Positions 3,565 to 64,000 of a stretch of DNA of 64,000 bases are shown one piece after another (within the stretch, counting starts at the first letter, position 1; each line of letters starts with the position of its first letter). The stretch is from contig JAWQUS010000025.1 in assembly GCA_036365455.1 (NCBI GenBank), positions 21,364,001 to 21,428,000 on the forward strand, in the 5' to 3' direction. Position numbers and translations under genes: made by a program. The notes beneath the pieces were generated by a model that saw nothing but the letters and a program-made list of their open reading frames with translations, did not search any database and was not told the origin of the DNA. The DNA is from Macrosoma leucophasiata (Eukaryota; Arthropoda; Insecta; Lepidoptera; Hedylidae).

Positions 3565-3576
3565 AATATTCAAATA
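3565..3576 (+). repeat. target-site duplication, left
   Basis: aatattcaaata, repeated exactly at 4366-4377 on the other side of the inserted tRNA-like element. Confidence 0.8.
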
Positions 3577-3613
3577 TATTTGTATTTTAAAGAAAAATGG
3601 AAATAAAAGTTTG

Positions 3614-3687
3614 ACTTCAGGCGAGACTCGAACTCGCGGTCTACTGGGAATCTAGTCCAGCCGCTCTTCCAATTGAGCTACTGAAGT
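3614..3687 (-). ncRNA. tRNA-like sequence
   Basis: 74 bases folding as a tRNA: a 7-bp acceptor stem (ACTTCAG with CTGAAGT), a D arm GCTC/GAGC around an AATTGG loop, and a 5-bp T stem GCGAG/CTCGC with loop TTCGAGT. The anticodon arm is irregular, with two bases too many for a normal 17-base arm. A-box (TAGCTCAATTGG) and B-box (GAGTTCGAGTC) Pol III signals are present. It is a retroposed tRNA-like element rather than a normal tRNA gene. Confidence 0.65.
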
Positions 3688-3908
3688 CCTGCCCGATTTG
3701 TCAAATCTTTCCTTCACTTATGGTAGCAGCAGCGCCATCTATTGCCAACTATGCTAGTTAGGCAACCGATATAATAGACTTTGCAGTTTATTGAATATCG
3801 TAAAGAAGTCGCTTTTACCCTTAATAATTGTTTGATATTATTTCGCATTAACACATGCTTGTGAAATATATTTTATTTAAAGAAACATGGAAAGAAAAAT
3901 TGGGCAGG

Positions 3909-3982
3909 ACTTCAGTAGCTCAATTGGAAGAGAGGCTGGACTAGATTCCCAGTAGGTCGCGAGTTCGAGTCTCGCCTGAAGT
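3909..3982 (+). ncRNA. tRNA-like sequence
   Basis: Same fold as the copy at 3614-3687. One D-stem base is changed (GAGC to GAGA at about 3930-3933), which weakens the D arm. Confidence 0.6.
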
Positions 3983-4215
3983 CAAATTTTTCTTTCCATT
4001 TTTCTTTAAAATACAAATATATTTCACAAGCATGTGTTAATGCGAAATAATATAAAACAGTTATTAAGGGTAAAAGCGACTTCTTTACGATATTCAATAA
4101 ACTGCAAAGTCTATTATATCGGTTGCCTAACTAGCATAGTTGGCAATAGATGGCGCTGCTGCTACCATAAAGCAATGCAATAAATGTGAATGAAAGATTC
4201 GACAAATCGGGTAGG

Positions 4216-4289
4216 ACTTCAGTAGCTCAATTGGAAGAGCGGCTGGACTAGATTCCCAGTAGGCCGCGAGTTCGAGTCTCGCCTGAAGT
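4216..4289 (+). ncRNA. tRNA-like sequence
   Basis: Same family, with acceptor, D and T arms intact; ggtcg in the variable region is read ggccg here. It is followed by an aaatttttctttcc tail. Confidence 0.6.
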
Positions 4290-4895
4290 CAAATTTTTCT
4301 TTCCATTTTTCTTTAAAATTCAAATATATTTCACAAGCATGTGAATGTGCGAAATAATATAAAACAATATTCAAATAACCTCTTTTTACTAAATGCCTAT
4401 GTATGTGGTGTATAGGTGTATACGTGTACACGGTACATATGCAAAAACTACATTTTTTACAATTTTTGTCTGTCTGTCTGTCTGTCTGTTTGGCGGGGCT
4501 AATCGGACTGGACTTTCACTGGTAGATAGCTGATGTGATAAGGAGTAACTTAGGCTACTTTTATCTCCATACATCCGTACATACATACCTACATCCAAAT
4601 AATTAGAATAGGAGTGTATACGACTTTGACGGGACTTCCACGGGTACGTAGCTGATGTAATAAGGAGTAACTTAGGCTACTTTTATTTCCATACATATAT
4701 ACATACATACCTACATACAAATACATAGAATTTGAGTGAATCCGATTTTGACGGGACTTTCACTGGTAGATAGCTGATGTGATAAGGAGTAACTTAGGCT
4801 ACTTTTATACTAGCTGCGCCCATGACTTCGTCCGGGTAGATACTAAACAACTTTATTTTTTCTCACGTGGACGAAGTCGCGGGCACCGCTAGTCA

Positions 4896-9432: not shown

Positions 9433-9860
9433 AGAATTATAACAAGAGTTGGTAATAGATGGCGCTGCTGCTACCATAAAGCAATGAGTTTGACTCTCGC
9501 CTAAGGTCAATTTTTTCTTTCCATTTTTCTTTAAAAATAAAATATATTTCACAAGCATGTGTTAATGCGAAATAATATAAAACAATTATTAAGGGTAAAA
9601 GCGACTTCTTTACGATATTCAATAAACTGAAAAGTCTTATATCGGTTGCCTAACTAGCATAGTTGGTAATAGATGGCGCTGCTGCTACCATAAAGCAATG
9701 CAATAGATGTGAAGCAAAGATTTGACAAATCGGGCAGGGCTTCAGTAGCTCAATTGGAAGAGCGGCTGGACTAGATTCCCAGTAGGTCGCGAGTTCGAGT
9801 CTCGCCTGAAGTCAATTTTTTCTTTCCATTTTTCTTTAAAAATAAAATAGAATTATAACA
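9433..9860 (+). mobile_element. tRNA-like 307-bp-unit element, direct 5'-truncated copy with 12-bp target-site duplication
   Basis: agaattataaca occurs at 9433-9444 and again at 9849-9860. The insert (9445-9848) starts in the middle of the unit (ggtaatagatggcgctgctg). It has an internal deletion joining aagcaatg to the end of a tRNA-like sequence, then one whole unit with a complete tRNA-like sequence at 9739-9812, and ends ctttaaaaataaaat. It is all in one orientation, unlike the other three insertions. Truncation at the 5' side with a short duplication fits LINE-driven retroposition. Confidence 0.8.
9739..9812 (+). ncRNA. tRNA-like sequence
   Basis: Same fold as 3614-3687. The first acceptor base is G instead of A, pairing as G-T. 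Confidence 0.6.
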
Positions 9861-10394: not shown

Positions 10395-11545
10395 TTTCTT
10401 ACTAGCTGTGCCAGCGACTTTGTCTACGTGAGAAAAAGTATGATTGTTCAGTATCTACCCGGACGAAGTCGTGGGCGCAGCTAGTATAAAAGTAGCCTAA
10501 GTTACTCCTTACTACATCAGCTATCTGCCAGTGCAAGTCCCGTCAAAATCGGAGACACTCAAATTCTGTTTATTTGTATGTAGGTATGTATGTATGGATG
10601 TATGGAGATAATAGTAGCCTAAGTTACTCCTTGTTACATCAGCTACCTTCCCATGGAAGTCCCGTCAAAGTCGGATACTCTCCAATTCTACTTATTTGTA
10701 TGTAGGTATGTATGTATGTATGGATGTATGGAGATAAAGGTAGCCTTAGTTACTCCTTATCACATCAGCTATCTGCCAGTGAAAGTCCCGTCAAAATCGG
10801 CCAAGCCGTTCCCAAGATTAGCCCCGCCAAACAGACAGACAGACAAAAATTGAAAAAAATGTTGTTTTGGTATATGTACCGTGTACACATACATATGCGT
10901 TTAGTAAAAAGCGGTTATTTTAATATTACAAACAGAGACTCCAATTTTATGTATTTGTATGTATATAGATTTATTATGGAAGCTACAATACAACATAAGA
11001 CCTAAAAATTCTGTGTAAATTTTAAGCGTCTTCATTATAGCGGTAACAGAAATACATAATTTGTGAAAATGTTAGCTTTCTAGCTATCACTATTTATGAG
11101 ATACAGCCTGGTGACAGACAGACGGACGGATGGACAGACAGACAGACAGCGGAGGATAAGATATCCGTAGGGTCCATTTTTATCTATTAGGTAAGAAACT
11201 TCCTAAAAGATAGAACTAAGATACAGATAAGCTTAAAAATATTCGATACGATTCTTTAAATGGACATAACTTTTTTATTTCTTAACCGATTCACATGAAA
11301 CAAACACTAAATGTTAAGTGAAACTTACCACAAAATACCGCAAATAAGCCGTTTCTGATATTAGCGTGCACTAACACACAGACAAACAGACATTTTTCCG
11401 GAATAAAAAGTACCCAGTGTTGTGCGCCAAGGGTTAAAGTATAATCATACCAAGTTTCATTGTAATCGGACCAGTAGTTTTAATGTGATGCTTGAACAAA
11501 CAGACAGACAGACAAAAAATTTTCTAATCACATATTTGTGTTCGG
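10395..11545 (-). repeat. composite dispersed repeat block, inverted copy
   Basis: Reverse complement of most of 2755-4895, including the threefold tandem of about 125 bases (10490-10810) and the actagctg-type terminal pair at 10402-10482. It lacks the tRNA-like insertion: at 10913-10930 the sequence reads straight through the site that is interrupted at 3565-4377, giving an empty-site paralogue. Confidence 0.65.
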
Positions 11546-24545: not shown

Positions 24546-24558
24546 AATACTTACTATA
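24546..24558 (+). repeat. target-site duplication, left, of the tRNA-like array
   Basis: aatacttactata, repeated exactly at 28682-28694 on the far side of the 4.1-kb array. Confidence 0.75.
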
Positions 24559-24593
24559 TTTTATTTTTAAAGAAAAATGGAAAGAAAAAATTG

Positions 24594-24667
24594 ACTTCAG
24601 GCGAGGCTCGAACTCGCGACCTACTGGGAATCTAGTCCAGCCGCTCTTCCAATTGAGCTACTGAAGC
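24594..24667 (-). ncRNA. tRNA-like sequence, first of five minus-strand array copies
   Basis: Acceptor GCTTCAG/CTGAAGT, D arm GCTC/GAGC, T arm GCGAG-TTCGAGC-CTCGC, all intact. The anticodon arm can be drawn as CTGGA/CCCAG with loop CTAGATT (one A-C mismatch; nominal anticodon AGA) or as GCTGG/CCAGT with a nine-base loop. Sister copies: 24901-24974, 25208-25281, 25515-25588, 25822-25895. No CCA is encoded, as normal in animals. Confidence 0.65.
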
Positions 24668-26075
24668 CCTGCCCGATTTGTCAAATTTTTCCTTCACATC
24701 TATTGCATTGCTTTATGGTAGCAGTAGCGCCATCTATTACCAACTATGCTAGTTAGGCAACCGATATAATAGACTTTTCAGTTTATTGAATATCGTAAAG
24801 AAGTCGCTTTTACCCTTAATAATTGTTTTATATTATTTCGCATTAACACATGCTTGTGAAATATATTTTATTTTTAAAGAAAAATGGAAAGAAAAAATTG
24901 ACTTCAGGCGAGGCTCGAACTCGCGACCTACTGGGAATCTAGTCCAGCCGCTCTTCCAATTGAGCTACTGAAGCCCTGCCCGATTTGTCAAATTTTTCCT
25001 TCACATCTATTGCATTGCTTTATGGTAGCAGTAGCGCCATCTATTACCAACTATGCTAGTTAGGCAACCGATATAATAGACTTTTCAGTTTATTGAATAT
25101 CGTAAAGAAGTCGCTTTTACCCTTAATAATTGTTTTATATTATTTCGCATTAACACATGCTTGTGAAATATATTTTATTTTTAAAGAAAAATGGAAAGAA
25201 AAAATTGACTTCAGGCGAGGCTCGAACTCGCGACCTACTGGGAATCTAGTCCAGCCGCTCTTCCAATTGAGCTACTGAAGCCCTGCCCGATTTGTCAAAT
25301 TTTTCCTTCACATCTATTGCATTGCTTTATGGTAGCAGTAGCGCCATCTATTACCAACTATGCTAGTTAGGCAACCGATATAATAGACTTTTCAGTTTAT
25401 TGAATATCGTAAAGAAGTCGCTTTTACCCTTAATAATTGTTTTATATTATTTCGCATTAACACATGCTTGTGAAATATATTTTATTTTTAAAGAAAAATG
25501 GAAAGAAAAAATTGACTTCAGGCGAGGCTCGAACTCGCGACCTACTGGGAATCTAGTCCAGCCGCTCTTCCAATTGAGCTACTGAAGCCCTGCCCGATTT
25601 GTCAAATTTTTCCTTCACATCTATTGCATTGCTTTATGGTAGCAGTAGCGCCATCTATTACCAACTATGCTAGTTAGGCAACCGATATAATAGACTTTTC
25701 AGTTTATTGAATATCGTAAAGAAGTCGCTTTTACCCTTAATAATTGTTTTATATTATTTCGCATTAACACATGCTTGTGAAATATATTTTATTTTTAAAG
25801 AAAAATGGAAAGAAAAAATTGACTTCAGGCGAGGCTCGAACTCGCGACCTACTGGGAATCTAGTCCAGCCGCTCTTCCAATTGAGCTACTGAAGCCCTGC
25901 CCGATTTGTCAAATTTTTCCTTCACAAGGGTAAAAGCGACTTCTTTACGATATTCAATAAACTGAAAAGTCTATTATATCGGTTGCCTAACTAGCATAGT
26001 TGGTAATAGATGGCGCTACTGCTACCATAAAGCAATGCAATAGATGTGAAGGAAAAATTTGACAAATCGGGCAGG

Positions 26076-26149
26076 GCTTCAGTAGCTCAATTGGAAGAGC
26101 GGCTGGACTAGATTCCCAGTAGGTCGCGAGTTCGAGCCTCGCCTGAAGT
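26076..26149 (+). ncRNA. tRNA-like sequence, first of nine plus-strand array copies
   Basis: Identical to the minus-strand array copies. Sister copies: 26383-26456, 26690-26763, 26997-27070, 27304-27377, 27611-27684, 27918-27991, 28225-28298, 28532-28605. All share the array-specific base in the T loop (TTCGAGC, against TTCGAGT in the complete dispersed copies at 3614, 3909, 4216 and 9739; the copy at 44907 is deleted there). A T-run of six (caattttttc) starts two bases after the tRNA-like sequence and would act as a Pol III terminator. Confidence 0.65.
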
Positions 26150-28681
26150 CAATTTTTTCTTTCCATTTTTCTTTAAAAATAAAATATATTTCACAAGCAT
26201 GTGTTAATGCGAAATAATATAAAACAATTATTAAGGGTAAAAGCGACTTCTTTACGATATTCAATAAACTGAAAAGTCTATTATATCGGTTGCCTAACTA
26301 GCATAGTTGGTAATAGATGGCGCTACTGCTACCATAAAGCAATGCAATAGATGTGAAGGAAAAATTTGACAAATCGGGCAGGGCTTCAGTAGCTCAATTG
26401 GAAGAGCGGCTGGACTAGATTCCCAGTAGGTCGCGAGTTCGAGCCTCGCCTGAAGTCAATTTTTTCTTTCCATTTTTCTTTAAAAATAAAATATATTTCA
26501 CAAGCATGTGTTAATGCGAAATAATATAAAACAATTATTAAGGGTAAAAGCGACTTCTTTACGATATTCAATAAACTGAAAAGTCTATTATATCGGTTGC
26601 CTAACTAGCATAGTTGGTAATAGATGGCGCTACTGCTACCATAAAGCAATGCAATAGATGTGAAGGAAAAATTTGACAAATCGGGCAGGGCTTCAGTAGC
26701 TCAATTGGAAGAGCGGCTGGACTAGATTCCCAGTAGGTCGCGAGTTCGAGCCTCGCCTGAAGTCAATTTTTTCTTTCCATTTTTCTTTAAAAATAAAATA
26801 TATTTCACAAGCATGTGTTAATGCGAAATAATATAAAACAATTATTAAGGGTAAAAGCGACTTCTTTACGATATTCAATAAACTGAAAAGTCTATTATAT
26901 CGGTTGCCTAACTAGCATAGTTGGTAATAGATGGCGCTACTGCTACCATAAAGCAATGCAATAGATGTGAAGGAAAAATTTGACAAATCGGGCAGGGCTT
27001 CAGTAGCTCAATTGGAAGAGCGGCTGGACTAGATTCCCAGTAGGTCGCGAGTTCGAGCCTCGCCTGAAGTCAATTTTTTCTTTCCATTTTTCTTTAAAAA
27101 TAAAATATATTTCACAAGCATGTGTTAATGCGAAATAATATAAAACAATTATTAAGGGTAAAAGCGACTTCTTTACGATATTCAATAAACTGAAAAGTCT
27201 ATTATATCGGTTGCCTAACTAGCATAGTTGGTAATAGATGGCGCTACTGCTACCATAAAGCAATGCAATAGATGTGAAGGAAAAATTTGACAAATCGGGC
27301 AGGGCTTCAGTAGCTCAATTGGAAGAGCGGCTGGACTAGATTCCCAGTAGGTCGCGAGTTCGAGCCTCGCCTGAAGTCAATTTTTTCTTTCCATTTTTCT
27401 TTAAAAATAAAATATATTTCACAAGCATGTGTTAATGCGAAATAATATAAAACAATTATTAAGGGTAAAAGCGACTTCTTTACGATATTCAATAAACTGA
27501 AAAGTCTATTATATCGGTTGCCTAACTAGCATAGTTGGTAATAGATGGCGCTACTGCTACCATAAAGCAATGCAATAGATGTGAAGGAAAAATTTGACAA
27601 ATCGGGCAGGGCTTCAGTAGCTCAATTGGAAGAGCGGCTGGACTAGATTCCCAGTAGGTCGCGAGTTCGAGCCTCGCCTGAAGTCAATTTTTTCTTTCCA
27701 TTTTTCTTTAAAAATAAAATATATTTCACAAGCATGTGTTAATGCGAAATAATATAAAACAATTATTAAGGGTATAAGCGACTTCTTTACGATATTCAAT
27801 AAACTGAAAAGTCTATTATATCGGTTGCCTAACTAGCATAGTTGGTAATAGATGGCGCTACTGCTACCATAAAGCAATGCAATAGATGTGAAGGAAAAAT
27901 TTGACAAATCGGGCAGGGCTTCAGTAGCTCAATTGGAAGAGCGGCTGGACTAGATTCCCAGTAGGTCGCGAGTTCGAGCCTCGCCTGAAGTCAATTTTTT
28001 CTTTCCATTTTTCTTTAAAAATAAAATATATTTCACAAGCATGTGTTAATGCGAAATAATATAAAACAATTATTAAGGGTAAAAGCGACTTCTTTACGAT
28101 ATTCAATAAACTGAAAAGTCTATTATATCGGTTGCCTAACTAGCATAGTTGGTAATAGATGGCGCTACTGCTACCATAAAGCAATGCAATAGATGTGAAG
28201 GAAAAATTTGACAAATCGGGCAGGGCTTCAGTAGCTCAATTGGAAGAGCGGCTGGACTAGATTCCCAGTAGGTCGCGAGTTCGAGCCTCGCCTGAAGTCA
28301 ATTTTTTCTTTCCATTTTTCTTTAAAAATAAAATATATTTCACAAGCATGTGTTAATGCGAAATAATATAAAACAATTATTAAGGGTAAAAGCGACTTCT
28401 TTACGATATTCAATAAACTGAAAAGTCTATTATATCGGTTGCCTAACTAGCATAGTTGGTAATAGATGGCGCTACTGCTACCATAAAGCAATGCAATAGA
28501 TGTGAAGGAAAAATTTGACAAATCGGGCAGGGCTTCAGTAGCTCAATTGGAAGAGCGGCTGGACTAGATTCCCAGTAGGTCGCGAGTTCGAGCCTCGCCT
28601 GAAGTCAATTTTTTCTTTCCATTTTTCTTTAAAAATAAAATATATTTCACAAGCATGTGTTAATGCGAAATAATATAAAAC

Positions 28682-28694
28682 AATACTTACTATA
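28682..28694 (+). repeat. target-site duplication, right, of the tRNA-like array
   Basis: aatacttactata; see 24546-24558. Confidence 0.75.
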
Positions 28695-34020: not shown

Positions 34021-34959
34021 TATTTAATTTGTCCTATATAACAGCACATATGTAGAAAAGAGACAAAGCTAAAAGTAACTCTGTTTACTACGTAAGTCGA
34101 CTAACAGCCTAACTCGCATTGTATAACCATAGGTTGGTCTGGTCTAGTGAAGTGCCCCCTTCATTAGCTCTATTGTGGAATTACTCTCGAATAGGAAGTT
34201 GAATTTAATTTGCATCATAAAGTGGACTTCATAAATTGTCCTTTGTCGGCTAAATATATGGATCCGAGAGGCGTATACCTTTTATCCAGTGATAAAAGCA
34301 AAAGTTTCATGGTAAAATTATTTAAAAGCGTAACTTTACGCCTGTGTTCCCGGAAAGCAGAATTATGTATGCAAACCAAGTATAATTTTCTTCACTCACA
34401 CATCGAATATAAAATGAGCTATTACCTATTTGGTTAGAAAATATGTATCGATACTTAATTTTTGACGTCGGCACTTGACGACTAGGGATTTCAATCCCGC
34501 AAAATGGGCTCCACCGTCCCCGCGGGATCCCGCACCCCTTATCAATCTGGTGGATCCCGCAACTTAAAAACGCGAATCCGTGGATTCCGCTAATTAATTT
34601 GCTGCTAAAACGTGAAGTTTCGCGAGAAAGCAGTAGTTCACTCTTAATCTCATGTTTAATGAGATTGATTATCTTATCTGTTTTTAGATGTAACGTTTAA
34701 ATTAAACGGAACTAGATGCGAAACATTAAACAAATTTAGGTCATTTAAATCTGATTTGATTACTAATTATTCTTACTTACTTAACTATAGTTTTATTAAT
34801 ATTTTTTCAGAAAACAAATAGTTTTACACACAACATGTGAAACAAATTTTATTAAAAAACACTTTAAGGTCCCTATTGACTTTTTTCTACTGAAAGAGAA
34901 TTCTTCCACTCTAATAAACTCAATAAACTGTGAAGGCAAAATTAGACAGTGAGGTGTGG

Positions 34960-35034
34960 ACTTCGGTAGCTCAGTAGGTGAGAGCGACTGGACTAGTAAT
35001 CCCAGTGGTCGCAGATTCAAGTTCCGTATTAAGT
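34960..35034 (+). mobile_element. diverged tRNA-like head of the ACTTCAG family
   Basis: acttcggtagctcagtaggtg and gactggactagtaatcccag match the tRNA-like unit with many substitutions. The acceptor 3' side is ttaagt, and the tail aaaattttatttccatttta resembles that of the 307-bp unit, but the rest of the unit is absent. An older, solitary SINE form. Confidence 0.6.
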
Positions 35035-35162
35035 CAAAATTTTATTTCCATTTTATTTTCAAAATTGTATCTATTGTTCTTAGCTTTATATTTTTTTGTA
35101 GCTTGTCGTAAATAGACAAGTCTGGAATTTCAAAAAACCAAACAAATTTAAAATTTTAATAC

Positions 35163-44562: not shown

Positions 44563-45366
44563 GGTGGTAGAGCTCCAGTGACGGAGCTCACGGGAGTAAG
44601 CACCACCGCATTACCTAATATACTATTTGCTAAATGGTAGTGATCAGCACTGTAATTTCCGGCACACAGGCATAACACCTTAGGCCTCGGGCGCTGTAGG
44701 TAACGCATCTGCATTTTGACTTCTGGTCTTCGCGTGGGTGTCTATAGGCTGCAATCGTCACTTAACATGTTTCATTGTTTTTATTTATTTATTCAATAAC
44801 AATTTACATTGTGTTTAAAATGACAGCTAGGTATAAAATAATTAATTACAAATGCAATTATACAAAATGTTTTTTATGCTTAAAGAAAATTGGAAATAAA
44901 AATTTGACTTCAGGCGAGTTCGACTCGCGACCTACTGGGAATCTAGTCCAGCCGCTCTTCCAATTGAGCTACTGAAGCCCTGCCCGATTTGTCAAATCTT
45001 TCCTTCACATCTATTGCATTGCTTTATGGTAGCAGCAGCGCCATCTATTACCAACTATGCTAGTTAGGCAACCGATATAATAGACTTTTTGCAGTTTATT
45101 GAATATCGTAAAGAAGTCGCTTTTACCCTTAATAATTGTTTTATATTATTTCGCATTAACACATGCTTGTGAAATATATTTTATTTTTAGAGAAAAATGG
45201 AAAGAAATAAGCCTGAAGACAAATTTTTCTTTTCATTTTTCTTTAAAAATAAAATATATTTCACAAGCATGTGTTAATGCGAAATAATATAAAACAAAAT
45301 GTTTTTGTATATGTATATTATTAAATGAACTGCTTGCTTGTTTGCCACTTCCATTACATAAAAAAA
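44563..45366 (+). mobile_element. poly(A)-tailed SINE-like copy split by a 560-bp insertion
   Basis: The 5' part is 44563-44769 (ggtggtagagctccagtgac to gtcacttaacat) and the 3' part is 45328-45366 (gaactgcttgcttgtttgcc plus poly(A)). Between them is an unrelated AT-rich segment that itself carries the tRNA-like element at 44875-45293, so three layers of insertion are visible. Confidence 0.75.
44862..45306 (-). mobile_element. tRNA-like 307-bp-unit element, inverted short form with target duplication
   Basis: acaaaatgttttt at 44862-44874 and 45294-45306 (11-13 bases, depending on whether the first two belong to the element). The left arm is a full minus-strand unit with tRNA-like sequence 44907-44978, which lacks two bases in the T arm. 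At about 45208 it switches to a short forward arm (cctgaagac to gcgaaataatataaaac). The right end is the same as in the 3577 and 24559 insertions. Confidence 0.8.
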
Positions 45367-47601: not shown

Positions 47602-48879
47602 GGTTGGGGAAAAAGTCTTTTCGCATTATAGTATGTATGAACTTGTAATAAAATCTCTTTGGCTGTAGTTTTTGTATCTGGCTGGTTTTTAATATCATTG
47701 AAAGTTAAAATTTTAAAGAACATAATTCCAAATTCAAATTAGGCAAATGTGTGATTTTCATTTGTTTTTCGTACTGTCAAGATGAGTGAATCTAATGAAG
47801 AAATTGGATACATTTTAAAATTTTACTACAAAAAAGGTAAAAATGCAATGCAAGTCGCGAAAAAAATTTGCGATGTTTATGGACCTTGTGCAGTGTCTGT
47901 GAGAGTAGCACAAATTTGGTTTAAGCGTTTTCAATCCGGAAATTTTGATGTCAAAGATGCACCTCGCTCTGGTCGCCCTATTACGGATAAAATGGATGCC
48001 ATTTTTGAAAAAGTGGAGCAAGATCGACATATCAGTAGTTACGACGTAGCTGAAGAACTGAGAATTGATCACAAAACAGTTTTGGCGCATTTGAAAAAAG
48101 CTGGGTACAAAAAAAAGATCGATATTTGGGTACCTCACAAGCTCACTGAAAGAAACCTAATGAACCGTGTACTCATTTGTGATTCTTTATTACGACGTAA
48201 TGAAACCGAATCATTTTTGAAGAAGCTGATAACTGGTGATGAAACGTGGATCACGTACGATAAGAACGTGCGAAAAAGGTCGTGGTCAAAGGCCGGTCAG
48301 GCTTCACAGACTGTGGCGAAACCCGGGTTAACTCGCAATAAGGTGATGTTGTGTGTGTGGTGGGATTGGAAGGGCATTATTCATTATGAGCTATTACCAC
48401 CAGGCAGGACTATCGATTCTGAACTCTACTGCGAACAACTGATGAGATTAAAGCAAGAAGTTGAGAGAAAGCGGCCGGAATTGATCAACAGAAGGGGTGT
48501 AGTGTTTCATCATGATAACGCTAGACCTCACACATCTATAGCCACTCAGCAAAAATTAAGAGAGTTTGGCTGGGAGGTGTTATTGCATCCGCCGTATAGT
48601 CCTGACCTTGCACCTTCAGATTTCCACCTGTTTCGGTCTCTTCAGAATTCTTTATGCAATGTTAGGTTAACATCACATCATCTGTCAAATCCACTTGTCG
48701 CGGTATTTTGATGAGAAGTCCCAAAATTTTTATAGCAATGGGATCATGTCCCTACCTACAAGATGGCAAAAGGTTATCGAACAAAATGGTACATACATAC
48801 TTTAGTTAAATTTAAATAAACTATATTAAAAAATGTTTTGAATTATTTTAAAAAATGCGAAGAAACTTTTTCCCCAACC
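47602..48879 (+). mobile_element. mariner transposon, full length with TIRs and TA duplication
   Basis: 1278 bp. Left end ggttgggg, aaaaagtc, ttttcgcat. The right end is its near-inverse: atgcgaagaaac, tttttccccaacc. TA at 47600-47601 and 48880-48881. The TIRs are about 25 bp with about two mismatches. It inserted into the LINE remnant, splitting its coding sequence. Confidence 0.92.
47782..48711 (+). pseudogene. mariner transposase, D,D34D, disrupted at the C-terminus
   Basis: The 309-residue frame starts MSESNEEIGYIL. An N-terminal HTH region (IWFKRFQSGNFDVKDAPRSG, residues about 46-65) and a second HTH (RIDHKTVLAHLKKAGYKKK) are followed by WVPHKLTERN. Catalytic residues are Asp in ITGDETWI, Asp in HHDNARPHTS, and the third Asp exactly 34 intervening residues later in YSPDLAPSDFHLF; all three are present. 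Normal mariners are about 345 residues. Here a shift of frame after NVRLTS gives an early stop, and the usual C-terminal text (FYSNGI, RWQKVIEQNG) is still readable in another frame up to a stop near 48807. The copy is therefore young but probably inactive. Subfamily not determined. Confidence 0.88.
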
Positions 48880-50705: not shown

Positions 50706-51253
50706 TCATGCTCAACAACTGGAATAAAATAAATAAGCGTTTCGCCTTAGTGTCATCCTCATTGTGTCGCAGCCCTTAACCTTGTATCAATAGCAACCGA
50801 CCAATTCCGTCAGATATTGCAGAGTTTACCCTTTTTCTAATGGAACTGCCATTCAAAGGGAACCCTGTGTACACGCCCACTAAATAAAGGGAGGAAAAAT
50901 AAGCAATAAATAGAACAACCCTTCATCAAAAAGTGTCAACCTTAATCTTCACCTGGTACGAGATTAATCCGAAGGTCCCATGAAGATTTTTACTAAGATT
51001 TTTTGGTTTATAGTGTTGATTTTTATAACCAACATTCAATTGGAGGACCAAAATAAATCAAACTCAAGCAGTTTAATTGTAATATTTTTATTTTTGCTAT
51101 GTGAATTTGGAAATTTAAAAAAATGGACAGAAAAATTTGACTGCTGGCAGGAATCTAAACTTCAACCGCAGGATATACTATACCGCTAGATTTTAAAATG
51201 TTTTTATTTCAACGTAGGTACAATTCACAGGTTTTACCTCAAACGTGACCTCC

Positions 51254-54022: not shown

Positions 54023-54514
54023 AAAAAAACCTGCTGCCGCATTATAAGCCCGCACTTTCTTACCGGCTGATGTTCCCTCAAGGCCCTTAACGATTGCCTT
54101 ATGTTGCTCTCGCGTACTTCTATTATTTATATTTTTTCTCTCATCGGCACGGGGTCCAATTTGAACCCCTGGATCTTTGTCAGGCTTGCGCGGGGCATGT
54201 GGGGTCCAACAACACGTAGAGGCCCATTCGGGAATTTTGATCTTCTTTGTAATGGGTTATATTCGGCGGGACCTCTCTCTGACTCTATCAATAGTTAATG
54301 CAGACACAGACAGACCCCGCAGAATACATGGGACTATTGTAATGAAAAATGACTTGCCAAACTTTGGGCTATGTGGATGAACTGGGGGACTAGCTGGCTG
54401 GGCATATGGAGTAAGATCCGGCATCTGCCTATATTCAACATCTCGCATTATTGAATCCTACTTTAGGCAGGTGGTAACTACTTTATATTAATATTTTATA
54501 TTATTACTATTGGA

Positions 54515-54590
54515 TTTCTCAGTTGAGAGAGCGGTTGGACTAGTTTCCAGAGTTCGAGGGTTTCAAGTCCTGCCTGAAGTCAAATTTTTC
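54515..54590 (+). mobile_element. degenerate tRNA-like head of the ACTTCAG family
   Basis: tctcagttgagagagcggtt, gactagtttcc, then tcctgcctgaagtc and the tail aaatttttctttcc. Acceptor 5' side lost. No 307-bp unit follows. Confidence 0.55.
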
Positions 54591-55074
54591 TTTCCACATT
54601 TTTTACAAATAGCAATTTATGACAGATCTGTAATGTAATTAACTGACTAAAACTTATAAATTATTCAGAACCCAAAAACTGTATTTCAAATCCGAATAAA
54701 TTGGATAAATATATTTATTTGGCATACAATTCACTTTAGGGTTGCCTCCAAATCTGGCTTACAGTTTGAATTAAACTCGTTTCAAGTGGTTTTTAATCTC
54801 AAGCGACCCTTTTCTGGTTGTTATGATGAATAGTCCAAACGCCTTTTATTAAATTCTCATAATTAATTTCACTTTACTGAGTTAGGAATGTTTTTGTTAG
54901 GATGATGGAGTGTTTAGCTATTTATTTTTAATGTTCTCGAGTAAATGAAGTTTGTTTTATGAATCCCGTGCCTGGTCCTTAGTTTAAGTACCTAAGGGAA
55001 TAAAGGTTGTTAATAAAAACCAACTAATGGCCTTGCCACATAATTGACGTAATAAACGTGTATCTTTTCAGGGT

Positions 55075-60465: not shown

Positions 60466-60811
60466 TCCACTACTACTACGCTGGAGGTCCTGGGTTCGAT
60501 TCCCGGGTCGAGGGCTATCAGAGATAACGGTTTAAAATCCTTTATCTCTGGTTCTATTGGATTTTTTCCATTTTCTTAAGGTTTCCTCGGACCACGACCT
60601 CGGAGTTTGGATATGCCCCGAGATGGCAACAGGTTCGCCACCTGTTACATGGGCCAAAACGTAACCGGCGAGTCGTGGGTGTTTGCATGTATGCTTGAAT
60701 ACATGCATTTACTTCTGCCTACCCCTTCGGGGATTACAGGCATGAAGTTACGCTTACGTTTAATATTATCACTAAGTGACAGGATTAGGTGAGGCTAGGT
60801 AGCCTAGTTAA
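60466..60811 (+). mobile_element. tRNA-derived SINE with perfect B box, head-truncated copy
   Basis: tacgctggaggtcctggg, B box ggttcgattcc, body ttatctctggttctattgg, and a 3' part identical to the next copy (ctgcctaccccttcgggg, aggattaggtgaggctaggt). A-box half missing. Confidence 0.75.
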
Positions 60812-61172
60812 CTGCCTCGGTAGCCTAGTGGTAGCAGGCCACTACTACTACGCTGAGGTCCTGGGTTCGATTCCCGGGTAGGGGGTTATCAGAGATAATG
60901 GTGAAAAAGCCTTTGTCTCTGGTTCTATTGGGATTTTTCCATTTTCTGGAAATTTCCCAGTACCTCAAAGTTTGGTAATGTGCCCGGAGATGTCAACAGG
61001 CTCGCCACCTGTTACATGGGCCAAAACGTAACCGGCGAGTCGTGGGTGTTTGCATGTATGCTTGAATACATGCATTTACTTCTGCCTACCCCTTCGGGGA
61101 TTACAGGCATGAAGTTACGTTTACGTTTAATATTATCACTAAGTGACAGGATTAGGTGAGGCTAGGTAGCCT
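60812..61172 (+). mobile_element. tRNA-derived SINE with A and B boxes, full copy
   Basis: tgcctcggtagcctagtgg contains an A box (TAGCCTAGTGG), and ggttcgattcc is an exact B box, 40 bases apart, so Pol III could transcribe it. It is arranged in tandem with 60466-60811, and the last about 150 bases of the two copies are almost identical, which points to local duplication. Parent tRNA not identified. Confidence 0.8.
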
Positions 61173-61379
61173 AACCCTTGAGTTCCATCACAAGACAACT
61201 ACTAATGAGAGTACTGTCTTTAAAATAAATTATAAGTGATTAAGTTGTCAAGACAGAGGCCAATGTAATCGCTATTATAATTCTGGTTCTTGTTGCTCAC
61301 GTCGTCTTGAAAGTGTGCATTTTGCCTAAAGTAGACTTGGATTCTTTTAAGATAGACGTAACTTCACACCTGTAGTCAC

Positions 61380-61890
61380 CGAAGTGTTAGGCAGAGGTAA
61401 ATGCATACATTCAAATGTACTTAAACACCTTCGATTCGGCGTTTACGTTTTGAGTATTTTTGACCCATGTAACAGGTGGCAAGCCTGTTGATATCAAAGG
61501 GCACATTACCAAACTTCTGAATAGTTAGAAATTTAGAAAATTTCAGAAAATGGAACAATCTCAATAGAAACAGAGAAGGATTTTACATTGTTATCTCTGA
61601 TAGGCCCAGAATCAGAATCAGAAAATAATTTATTCATTTAGGGCGACAGGCACCTCTTGTGACACGTCAAAAACAAACAAAATAAATTAAAGTGAATAAC
61701 AATTGATATACATGTCAAACAAGATAAAAAATATATGTATAGTCAAGAATATCACTAAGATGAAACTAAATGTAATATACCTACTAATGTAAAAAGTATA
61801 TCAGTAGAATGTCTCATTCGCCCGATCCGGGAATCGAACCCAAGACAGCGTAGTAGTAGTGGCTCGCTACCACTAGATTACCGAGGGAGT
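61380..61890 (-). mobile_element. tRNA-derived SINE, reverse copy interrupted by a LINE/SINE tail
   Basis: The 3' body is 61380-61608 in reverse and the tRNA-like head is 61816-61890 in reverse (gggaatcgaacccaag, gctaccactagattaccgag). The interruption is between the head and the ttatctctgata block. Confidence 0.7.
61609..61815 (-). repeat. retrotransposon 3' end with TTCTGATTCTGATT tail, nested
   Basis: Reverse counterpart of 23295-23512, inserted into the SINE at 61380-61890. Confidence 0.65.
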
Positions 61891-62309
61891 TCTTTTGAAA
61901 TATATTTTATTTTAGACAGTTCATATTTTTCCTTTTTTCGATATGCTATATCAAGCCTTCTTGCTGAGCGAAAGTTTTTGCTGGGCATTGTCATATTTAT
62001 GCTCACAGCTGCGTTGTGTAGTCGATTTGCTCACCATAATACAATGTCATTGAAAATTTTCCCCAGACTCCAATACAATTTCCTGAGAGGCAAAAGGTAT
62101 AAACTATCAACGCGATGCCACCATCAATAATGCAACATGATACCTAATAAGCAATGTATAGGGACCCCATTCCCTTAAATAATTGAATTGTTCCCAACAA
62201 CAAAGGTCTGATCAATAACTTGAATACCAACTCGTTAACGTGGGTAAACAATTAATGAATGAGTTATTGTTTATAACAGAATAGACTTATGCTACTGGTG
62301 TTCTTTCCT

Positions 62310-63548: not shown

Positions 63549-64000
63549 GGGCGTCGGGACGCTGGGCGTCGGGACGCTGGGCGTCGGGACGCTGGGCGTC
63601 GGGACGCTGGGCGTCGGGACGCTTGGCGTCGGGACGATGGGCTTCGGGACGCTGGGCTTCGGGACGCTGGGCGTCGGGACGCTGGGCGTCGGGAGGCTGG
63701 GCGTCGGGACGCTGGGCGTCGGGACGCTGGGCGTCGGGACGCTGGGCGTCGGGACGCTGGGCGTCGGGACGCTGGGCGTCGGGACGCTGGGCGTCGGGAC
63801 GCTGGGCGTCGGGACGCTGGGCGTCGGGACGCTGGGCGTCGGGACGCTGGGCGTCGGGACGCTGGGCGTCGGGACGCTGGGCGTCGGGACGCTGGGCGTC
63901 GGGACGCTGGGCGTCGGGACGCTGGGCGTCGGGACGCTGGGCGTCGGGTCGCTGGGCGTCGGGACGCTTGACGTTGGGACGCTTGGCGTCGGCACACTGG
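63549..64000 (+). repeat. GC-rich 15-bp minisatellite, at least 30 units, running off the window
   Basis: Unit gggcgtcgggacgct, repeated almost perfectly, with variants clustered at both ends (gcttcgggacg near 63630-63660, gggaggct at about 63690, gggtcgct at about 63947, and degraded units after 63960). Because 15 is divisible by three, three frames stay open throughout, giving PTPSV, RRPAS and RRDAG peptides on the two strands; these are by-products, not genes. Confidence 0.95.

What the first reader, a model, noticed from the sequence alone, without database searches (positions are those of the whole stretch)
24546..28694. Inverted tandem array of fourteen near-identical 307-bp tRNA-like units, flanked by a 13-bp target duplication
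Seen: five units in one direction and nine in the other, with exact 307-base spacing, almost no differences between units, and aatacttactata immediately outside both ends. tRNA-derived SINEs normally insert as single copies. A homogeneous multi-unit retroposon-like block with a target duplication, in an intron, is unusual. The dispersed copies elsewhere carry other bases (gcgctgctgc, TTCGAGT), so the array-specific bases (gcgctactgc, TTCGAGC) indicate local amplification or concerted evolution. The outer flanks differ from each other, which argues against a simple hairpin-read assembly artefact.
Basis: partly seen in the sequence, partly recalled or inferred. Interest (0 to 1): 0.88.

Follow-up and report, generated by a model that had tools for sequence, protein, structure and literature searches.

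The report
Penelope-style inverted tRNA-repeat insertion
In an intron of a moth or butterfly serotonin-receptor-like gene, a short jumping element that carries a tRNA copy appears to have been pasted in as a two-way string of about thirteen nearly identical units in one event, apparently because a reverse transcriptase started from both ends of the cut and ran repeatedly over one small template.

Summary
A 13-bp duplication (24546-24558 / 28682-28694) encloses a (-) arm of 4.45 and a (+) arm of 8.98 units of 307 bp. They carry 5 + 9 tRNA-like domains and differ at one base. The array is not an exception among single copies: the three other clear loci in the window (A, B, C) are also multimeric with 12-13 bp duplications, and A and C have the same (-)(+) head-to-head form. 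In each of the three inverted loci one arm ends at unit position 260-265 and the other at 302-304, 39-42 bp apart. This resembles Penelope-like elements (PLEs): priming on both strands, two adjacent internal start sites, a 30-40 bp 'tail'. Best reading: one insertion by PLE-type enzymes copying a circular or multimeric RNA. It works like a PLE/retrozyme; membership is not shown. No hammerhead ribozyme was found; a tRNA-like domain lies upstream of the start sites. The partner PLE, the circle and genome-wide copies are untested, because the genome search did not complete (16 attempts). New variant of a known kind.

The parts
24546..24558 (.). left copy of 13-bp target-site duplication AATACTTACTATA
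   Evidence: exact word shared by the two edges; read
24559..25925 (-). (-) arm, 4.45 units of 307 bp; its outer end (RNA 3' side) lies at unit position about 263 (site alpha)
25926..28681 (+). (+) arm, 8.98 units of 307 bp; its outer end lies at unit position about 304 (site beta)
25925..25926 (.). head-to-head junction: (-) arm broken at unit position 124, (+) arm at unit position 5, one-base overlap
   Evidence: BLAST coordinates
28682..28694 (.). right copy of 13-bp target-site duplication
26076..26150 (+). one of 14 tRNA-like domains (unit positions about 154-230), followed within a few bases by a T6 run (unit 232-237)
   Evidence: ARAGORN; Rfam tRNA RF00005 49.4 bits; T6 position
27775..27775 (+). 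the only base that differs between units of the array (A to T)
3565..4377 (.). locus A: inverted (-)(+) copy of the same unit with 12-bp duplication AATATTCAAATA (3565-3576 / 4366-4377)
9433..9860 (+). locus B: direct partial tandem, 5' truncated, with an internal jump from unit 116 to 207; 12-bp duplication AGAATTATAACA (9433-9444 / 9849-9860); ends at site alpha
44862..45306 (.). locus C: inverted (-)(+) copy with 13-bp duplication ACAAAATGTTTTT (44862-44874 / 45294-45306)
34896..35066 (+). divergent relative, apparently single (74.7% identity over unit 117-259)
54500..54625 (+). second divergent relative, apparently single (79.4% identity over unit 165-260)

Best explanation
This is a recent insertion of a short non-coding retroelement by Penelope-type (PLE) machinery acting in trans. 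Both target strands were cut 12-13 nt apart. Each freed 3' end primed reverse transcription inside the element RNA, one at site alpha (unit about 260-265) and one at site beta (unit about 302-304). Each polymerase went repeatedly through a 307-nt unit, either round a small circular RNA or along a homogeneous multimeric RNA. The two cDNAs then met and joined head to head, giving (-)4.45 and (+)8.98 units inside a target duplication. Shown here: anatomy, duplications, recurrent end sites, orientation, homogeneity. Inferred: that the enzyme is a PLE, that the event was single, and the form of the template (circle about 50%, homogeneous linear multimer about 35%).
For: Head-to-head (-)(+) order in 3 of 3 inverted loci (the array, A, C), as priming from both target 3' ends predicts. 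12-13 bp AT-rich duplications in 4 of 4 multimeric loci. Arms end at alpha (263, 265, 260) and beta (304, 304, 302) in 3 of 3 inverted loci, and locus B ends at alpha (about 264) (worked out). Published PLE traits match: a purified PLE cuts and extends both strands, prefers AT-rich DNA and starts at two adjacent internal sites whose interval is the 30-40 bp 'tail'; rotifer Penelope copies show inverted pLTRs, 8-10 bp duplications and a 31-bp tail optionally at the 3' end of one inverted pLTR. Bases private to a locus are shared by its two arms: locus A unit 44, 83, 155; this array 97, 135, 216. Period exactly 307 throughout the array. Short nonautonomous Penelope elements are reported in butterflies.
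Against: No partner PLE was found; the genome search did not complete. No hammerhead, a motif described as conserved in PLEs. Only 4 multimeric loci were seen. The left arm uses alpha and the right beta in all three inverted loci, whereas the purified PLE showed no difference in start site between strands; with n = 3 this may be chance. The purified PLE starts at sites not homologous to the cut DNA, while the ends here share a few bases with the target. Uncut RNA was its dominant template and the authors picture a multi-copy mRNA, which favours a linear multimer over a circle. Units within the older loci differ: A 6 of 36 and C 9 of 39 bases between the alpha-terminal unit and the next, B 6 of 62, against a single-monomer circle there. 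Some rotifer copies have no duplication. T6 just after the tRNA-like domain should stop RNA polymerase III (recalled), so the source of a full-length RNA is unexplained. The predicted hairpin between alpha and beta is not significant (24 of 500 and 44 of 500 shuffles as stable).
Confidence: 0.57

Rival explanations
1. A small inverted insertion (like loci A or C) landed here first and was later expanded in each arm by unequal crossing-over or replication slippage, with gene conversion keeping units alike.
For: Tandem arrays commonly change unit number (general knowledge); A and C show that small inverted inserts exist.
Against: Both arms would need separate expansion within the time of about one substitution in 4123 bp; the single variant at 27775 did not spread to a neighbouring unit; both edges and the duplication are intact.
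Confidence: 0.18
2. An ordinary LINE mobilised a tRNA-derived SINE: twin priming, plus template jumping or a concatemeric RNA, made the inverted tandem.
For: tRNA-like domain with good box A and box B (consensus recalled); duplication length within the 5-17 bp range reported for truncated HaSE1 SINEs; the lepidopteran SINE HaSE2 also lacks a poly(A) or repeat tail and has ATAAAAA near its 3' end, like the ATAAAA at alpha and beta here; twin priming also gives head-to-head inversion (recalled).
Against: Two recurrent start sites, one of each in every inverted locus (3 of 3); multimers at 4 of 4 clear loci; exact unit junctions in the array; T6 right after the tRNA rather than at the 3' end.
Confidence: 0.11
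3. Self-priming: one cDNA is made from one target end, folds back and copies itself, so the second arm is a DNA copy of the first. The rotifer paper's authors explain head-to-head Penelope inversions in this way, on an antisense template.
For: A 1372-nt perfect inverted repeat with a 118-nt spacer looks like a snap-back; published interpretation.
Against: The outer end of the second arm would fall anywhere, but it lies at alpha in 3 of 3 inverted loci.
Confidence: 0.06
4. A foldback-like DNA transposon with internal repeats.
For: Recurrent left and right ends and target duplications; inverted repetitive arms.
Against: Locus B ends at alpha on the right and is truncated in mid-unit on the left, yet has a duplication; the inner junction differs in every locus; the two ends share only a weak TTTTAT likeness (my reading).
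Confidence: 0.04
5. Assembly artefact (hairpin read, or wrong unit number).
For: Long perfect palindromes are prone to it (general knowledge), and reads could not be seen.
Against: Unequal arms, 118-nt spacer, different flanks, a duplication at the edges, and the same architecture in two more diverged loci. A wrong unit count remains possible.
Confidence: 0.04

Closest known systems
Penelope-like elements (Penelope/Poseidon) and their short nonautonomous derivatives
   Same: Partial tandems, head-to-head inverted ends, target duplications, a 30-40 bp optional tail between two RT start sites, AT-rich targets; short nonautonomous Penelope elements occur in butterflies.
   Different: No coding sequence, no hammerhead found, a tRNA-like domain in the unit, many whole-unit repeats, duplications of 12-13 rather than the 8-10 bp quoted for rotifer copies (some of which have none), a fixed alpha/beta split between the strands in the three loci seen.
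Animal (non-LTR) retrozymes
   Same: About 300-bp units of low GC (36%) in dimers to large multimers, target duplications longer than 4 bp, a strongly self-paired unit (circular-fold z -4.0, 0 of 200 shuffles); proposed reverse transcription of RNA circles into multimers.
   Different: The defining type I hammerhead was not found; a tRNA-like domain is present; RNA circles not tested here.
tRNA-derived lepidopteran SINEs (HaSE1/2, PxSE1-3)
   Same: tRNA-like domain with Pol III boxes, non-coding, about 300 bp.
   Different: Those are described with a tRNA-related head at the 5' end and, except HaSE2, a LINE-type or simple-repeat 3' tail (passages); here the tRNA lies mid-unit with T6 behind it, and inserts are multimeric and mostly inverted.
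Helenus (TRIM with tRNA-like LTRs)
   Same: tRNA-like sequence inside a directly repeated unit; tandem arrays reported for one family.
   Different: Animal Helenus makes 4-bp duplications; here 12-13 bp, inverted, with variable ends.

Membership tests
Penelope-like element (nonautonomous) | two adjacent internal RT start sites giving a 30-40 bp tail on a fraction of ends | tested here: met
   Ends at alpha or beta in 4 of 4 multimeric loci; interval 39-42 bp in 3 of 3 inverted ones (worked out); published trait. Genomic ends only, no enzyme tested
Penelope-like element (nonautonomous) | inverted/partial-tandem insertion flanked by target duplication | tested here: met
   published trait
Penelope-like element (nonautonomous) | minimal type I hammerhead, described as conserved in PLEs | tested here: not met
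   so I say 'works like a PLE insertion', not 'is a PLE'
Penelope-like element (nonautonomous) | sequence shared with an autonomous GIY-YIG/RT element of the same genome | not tested
   The genome search unanswered in all 16 attempts
Animal retrozyme | type I hammerhead ribozyme in the unit | tested here: not met
   no hammerhead hit to E 10 in Rfam at 25600-26900 or locus A; three 7-mers within one mismatch of the core (CTGAAAA, CTGAAGT, CTGAAGC) but 0 arrangements with the three stems, either strand of a unit dimer (type I only, no positive control run)
Animal retrozyme | multimers of 150-450 bp units, low GC | tested here: met
   307 bp, GC 0.365
Animal retrozyme | abundant circular RNA | not testable with these tools
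   no RNA data
tRNA-derived SINE (LINE-mobilised) | tRNA head at the 5' end of the inserted copy, no Pol III terminator before the 3' end | tested here: not met
   T6 at unit 232-237, just after the tRNA-like domain (154-230); copies start and end elsewhere. Transcription itself not tested
tRNA-derived SINE (LINE-mobilised) | 3' tail shared with a partner LINE or poly(A)/simple repeat | tested here: inconclusive
   no poly(A) or simple-repeat tail seen in the 4 loci, but HaSE2 lacks one too; LINE comparison not possible without the genome
Helenus TRIM | 4-bp target duplication in animals | tested here: not met
   12-13 bp at 4 of 4 loci; 4 bp

The most novel reading that the evidence does not exclude
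A ribozyme-free retrozyme: a 307-nt RNA circle whose tRNA-like domain has taken over the processing or enzyme-docking job of the hammerhead, hitch-hiking on a PLE reverse transcriptase that loads on both target ends at two fixed sites and laps the circle several times. The insert then forms a 1.37-kb perfect hairpin in the host gene's pre-mRNA.
Probability: 0.3. Interest if true: 0.75.

Novelty: new variant of a known kind. Interest (0 to 1): 0.55.

Why it matters
How PLEs insert is still poorly known: the active protein studied in the paper I read cuts and extends both strands and starts at two internal sites in vitro. This locus looks like the genomic record of that reaction carried through: two arms, one from each target end, one from each start site, inside an intact duplication, young enough to read almost without mutation. 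It also offers a test of whether a circular template made the repeats, and of whether a tRNA can stand in for a ribozyme.

Tried and rejected
Hammerhead and other known ribozymes: none in Rfam to E 10 at 25600-26900 or locus A. A script scan for type I hammerheads on both strands of a unit dimer found three 7-mers one mismatch from the core but 0 full arrangements (no positive control was run). miRNA, snoRNA and sRNA hits score far below their gathering scores; I read those that span the inverted junctions as effects of the palindrome. A hairpin between the two start sites was looked for; its stability is not significant.

Exact scans for unit pieces gave 0 matches in viral contigs and 0 in genome contigs; those collections are not insect genomes, so this says little. 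Pfam on 10 of the 57 ORFs listed found a mariner transposase and the receptor domain, no PLE reverse transcriptase.

LTR/TRIM (Helenus) rejected on duplication length. Foldback DNA transposon rejected on locus B and on variable inner junctions. Self-priming, the rotifer authors' explanation, disfavoured on the recurrent outer end. Two further short BLAST matches to the unit (51114-51148, 61892-61913) were not pursued. Literature: ten paper searches showed no tRNA-bearing inverted PLE-type element among the titles and abstract starts listed. Of the papers opened I saw parts 1-3 of 6 of PMC7229834, parts 1-2 of 4 of PMC11167929, passages only of PMC3846280, PMC7761336, PMC4918198, PMC6685494, PMC8010984, PMC12910113 and PMC10886601, and passages plus abstract of PMC3272025. 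So this is not proof of absence. Two PLE papers are not held.
Full report
Observation. The array is as described. The 13-bp word AATACTTACTATA lies at 24546-24558 and 28682-28694. Between them are a (-) arm, 24559-25925, and a (+) arm, 25926-28681, of 4.45 and 8.98 units of exactly 307 bp. ARAGORN finds 5 (-) and 9 (+) tRNA-like domains in it and 4 elsewhere in the window; Rfam scores the four array domains in 25600-26900 at 49.4 bits each. The 'Ser (AGA)' label is ARAGORN's; I give it no weight, since the domain lacks the long variable arm of a tRNA-Ser (recalled). Only one base differs in the array, A to T at 27775. The longest perfect inverted repeat is 1372 nt with 118 nt between arms.

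Setting. The host is a lepidopteran: the exon at 22654-21749 matches a 5-HT-receptor-like protein of Ostrinia furnacalis at 89% and a Chilo suppressalis protein at 88%. Minus-strand matches at 58251-58153 (Ostrinia protein), 39464-39339 (both, Chilo to within a few bases to two dozen) and 29881-29750 (Chilo only) put the array in an intron of that gene.

The rest of the family. BLAST of one unit against the window finds three other clear loci. Locus A (3565-4377) is (-)(+), about 1.1 plus 1.5 units, with 12-bp duplication AATATTCAAATA. Locus C (44862-45306) is (-)(+), about 1.1 plus 0.3 units, with 13-bp duplication ACAAAATGTTTTT. Locus B (9433-9860) is a direct partial tandem with 12-bp duplication AGAATTATAACA. 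So 4 of 4 loci counting the array are multimeric and 3 of 4 are head-to-head. Left out of these counts: two more distant relatives at 34896-35066 and 54500-54625, which look single, and two short matches at 51114-51148 and 61892-61913, not pursued.

The ends recur. Combining, the outer end of the (-) arm lies at unit position 263 (array), 265 (A) and 260 (C); that of the (+) arm at 304, 304 and 302. Locus B ends at about 264. Microhomology leaves each uncertain by a few bases. There are thus two end sites, alpha and beta, 39-42 bp apart, and each inverted locus uses one of each. The inner junctions differ: array 124|5, A about 233|140, C 232|220, with a 116-to-207 jump in B. In A, B and C one break lies at 207-233, at or just beyond the 3' side of the tRNA-like domain (154-230), as if the polymerase stalled there; the array does not share this.

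Mechanism. Left arm (-) and right arm (+) is the order expected if each target 3' end primes its own cDNA: the top-strand end is extended rightward as antisense, the bottom-strand end leftward, and the two meet head to head. A purified PLE protein cuts and extends both strands, starts at two adjacent sites inside the RNA, and the interval equals the 'tail' seen on some genomic copies (parts 1 and 2 of 4 read). Rotifer Penelope copies show inverted pLTRs, 8-10 bp duplications (some copies none), and a 31-bp tail optionally at the 3' end of one inverted pLTR (passages). The match in order, two sites, interval and duplication is why I assign PLE-type machinery; no PLE was seen in this genome. Three published points do not fit as well. 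The purified PLE showed no strand difference in start site, while here left is alpha and right is beta in 3 of 3. Its start sites were not homologous to the cut DNA, while the ends here share a few bases with the target. And the rotifer authors explain the inversion by self-priming on an antisense template; I disfavour that because the second arm's outer end would not then be fixed.

Why many units. The same monomer, with array-private bases at 97, 135 and 216, fills both arms. A circular template, or a homogeneous multimer, gives this in one event. Animal retrozymes have this look (about 300 bp, low GC, dimers to large multimers, passages in 40). The unit is predicted to fold strongly as a circle (z -4.0, 0 of 200 shuffles, against z -2.3, 4 of 200, for the other strand), but unit 117-262, with the tRNA-like domain and its flanks, alone gives z -4.6, so most of the signal may be the tRNA region; the predicted fold partly competes with the cloverleaf. 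I draw no structure-function claim from it. Against a circle: the purified PLE mainly used uncut RNA and its authors picture a multi-copy mRNA. The alpha-terminal units of A and C differ from the next unit of the same arm at 6 of 36 and 9 of 39 bases, and B's two pieces at 6 of 62; these are short, edge-affected stretches. Divergence within a locus is not always lower than between loci: A's long units differ at 7 of 255, 10 of 163 and 6 of 126, while array and B differ at 6 of 266. So the one-monomer argument is clean only for the young array and for A's private sites 44, 83 and 155.

What is missing. No hammerhead. The tRNA-like domain lies upstream of the start sites, roughly where PLEs have their hammerhead (position inferred). 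T6 directly behind it should end Pol III transcripts (recalled), so a full unit must come from another promoter or read-through. Whether the domain helps processing, ligation or enzyme binding is open.

Rivals. Later expansion (0.18), LINE-driven twin priming of a SINE (0.11), self-priming (0.06), foldback DNA element (0.04) and artefact (0.04) are weighed in their sections.

Novelty. The heliconiine butterfly TE paper mentions 'short, nonautonomous Penelope elements' (passage), so the kind is known in the order; what I did not find in ten paper searches (listed in Tried and rejected) is the tRNA-bearing, hammerhead-less, many-unit two-armed form.

Limits. The genome search was unanswered in all 16 attempts, so everything rests on one 64-kb window, four multimeric loci and no reads.

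Noticed in passing
window 60467-61173: Tandem dimer (period 367, about 90% alike) of another element with a box-B-like GGTTCGATTCC; an inverted, diverged relative lies at 61357-61606. Could be the same insertion style.
   Followed up: partly
window 24555-27416: The two arms form a perfect 1372-bp inverted repeat in an intron; if transcribed it would make a long hairpin RNA, a possible siRNA source against its own family (inference).
   Followed up: no
unit positions 207-233 in loci A (3565-4377), B (9433-9860) and C (44862-45306): Breaks cluster at or just beyond the 3' side of the tRNA-like domain in three of four loci, as if reverse transcription stalls there.
   Followed up: partly
window 4506-4808 and 10486-10800: Two arrays of a 122-bp repeat in opposite orientations.
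   Followed up: no
window 63549-64000: 15-bp minisatellite GGGCGTCGGGACGCT, about 30 copies, running to the window end, open in one frame as a GRRDA repeat.
   Followed up: no
window 47755-48711: Mariner-type transposase ORF, 318 codons without a stop (Pfam Transposase_1).
   Followed up: no
window 1-64000: Whole-window Rfam at gathering listed 3 tRNAs against ARAGORN's 18; short-stretch runs scored missed domains at 45-49 bits, above the gathering score of 29, so the whole-window scan passed over them.
   Followed up: partly
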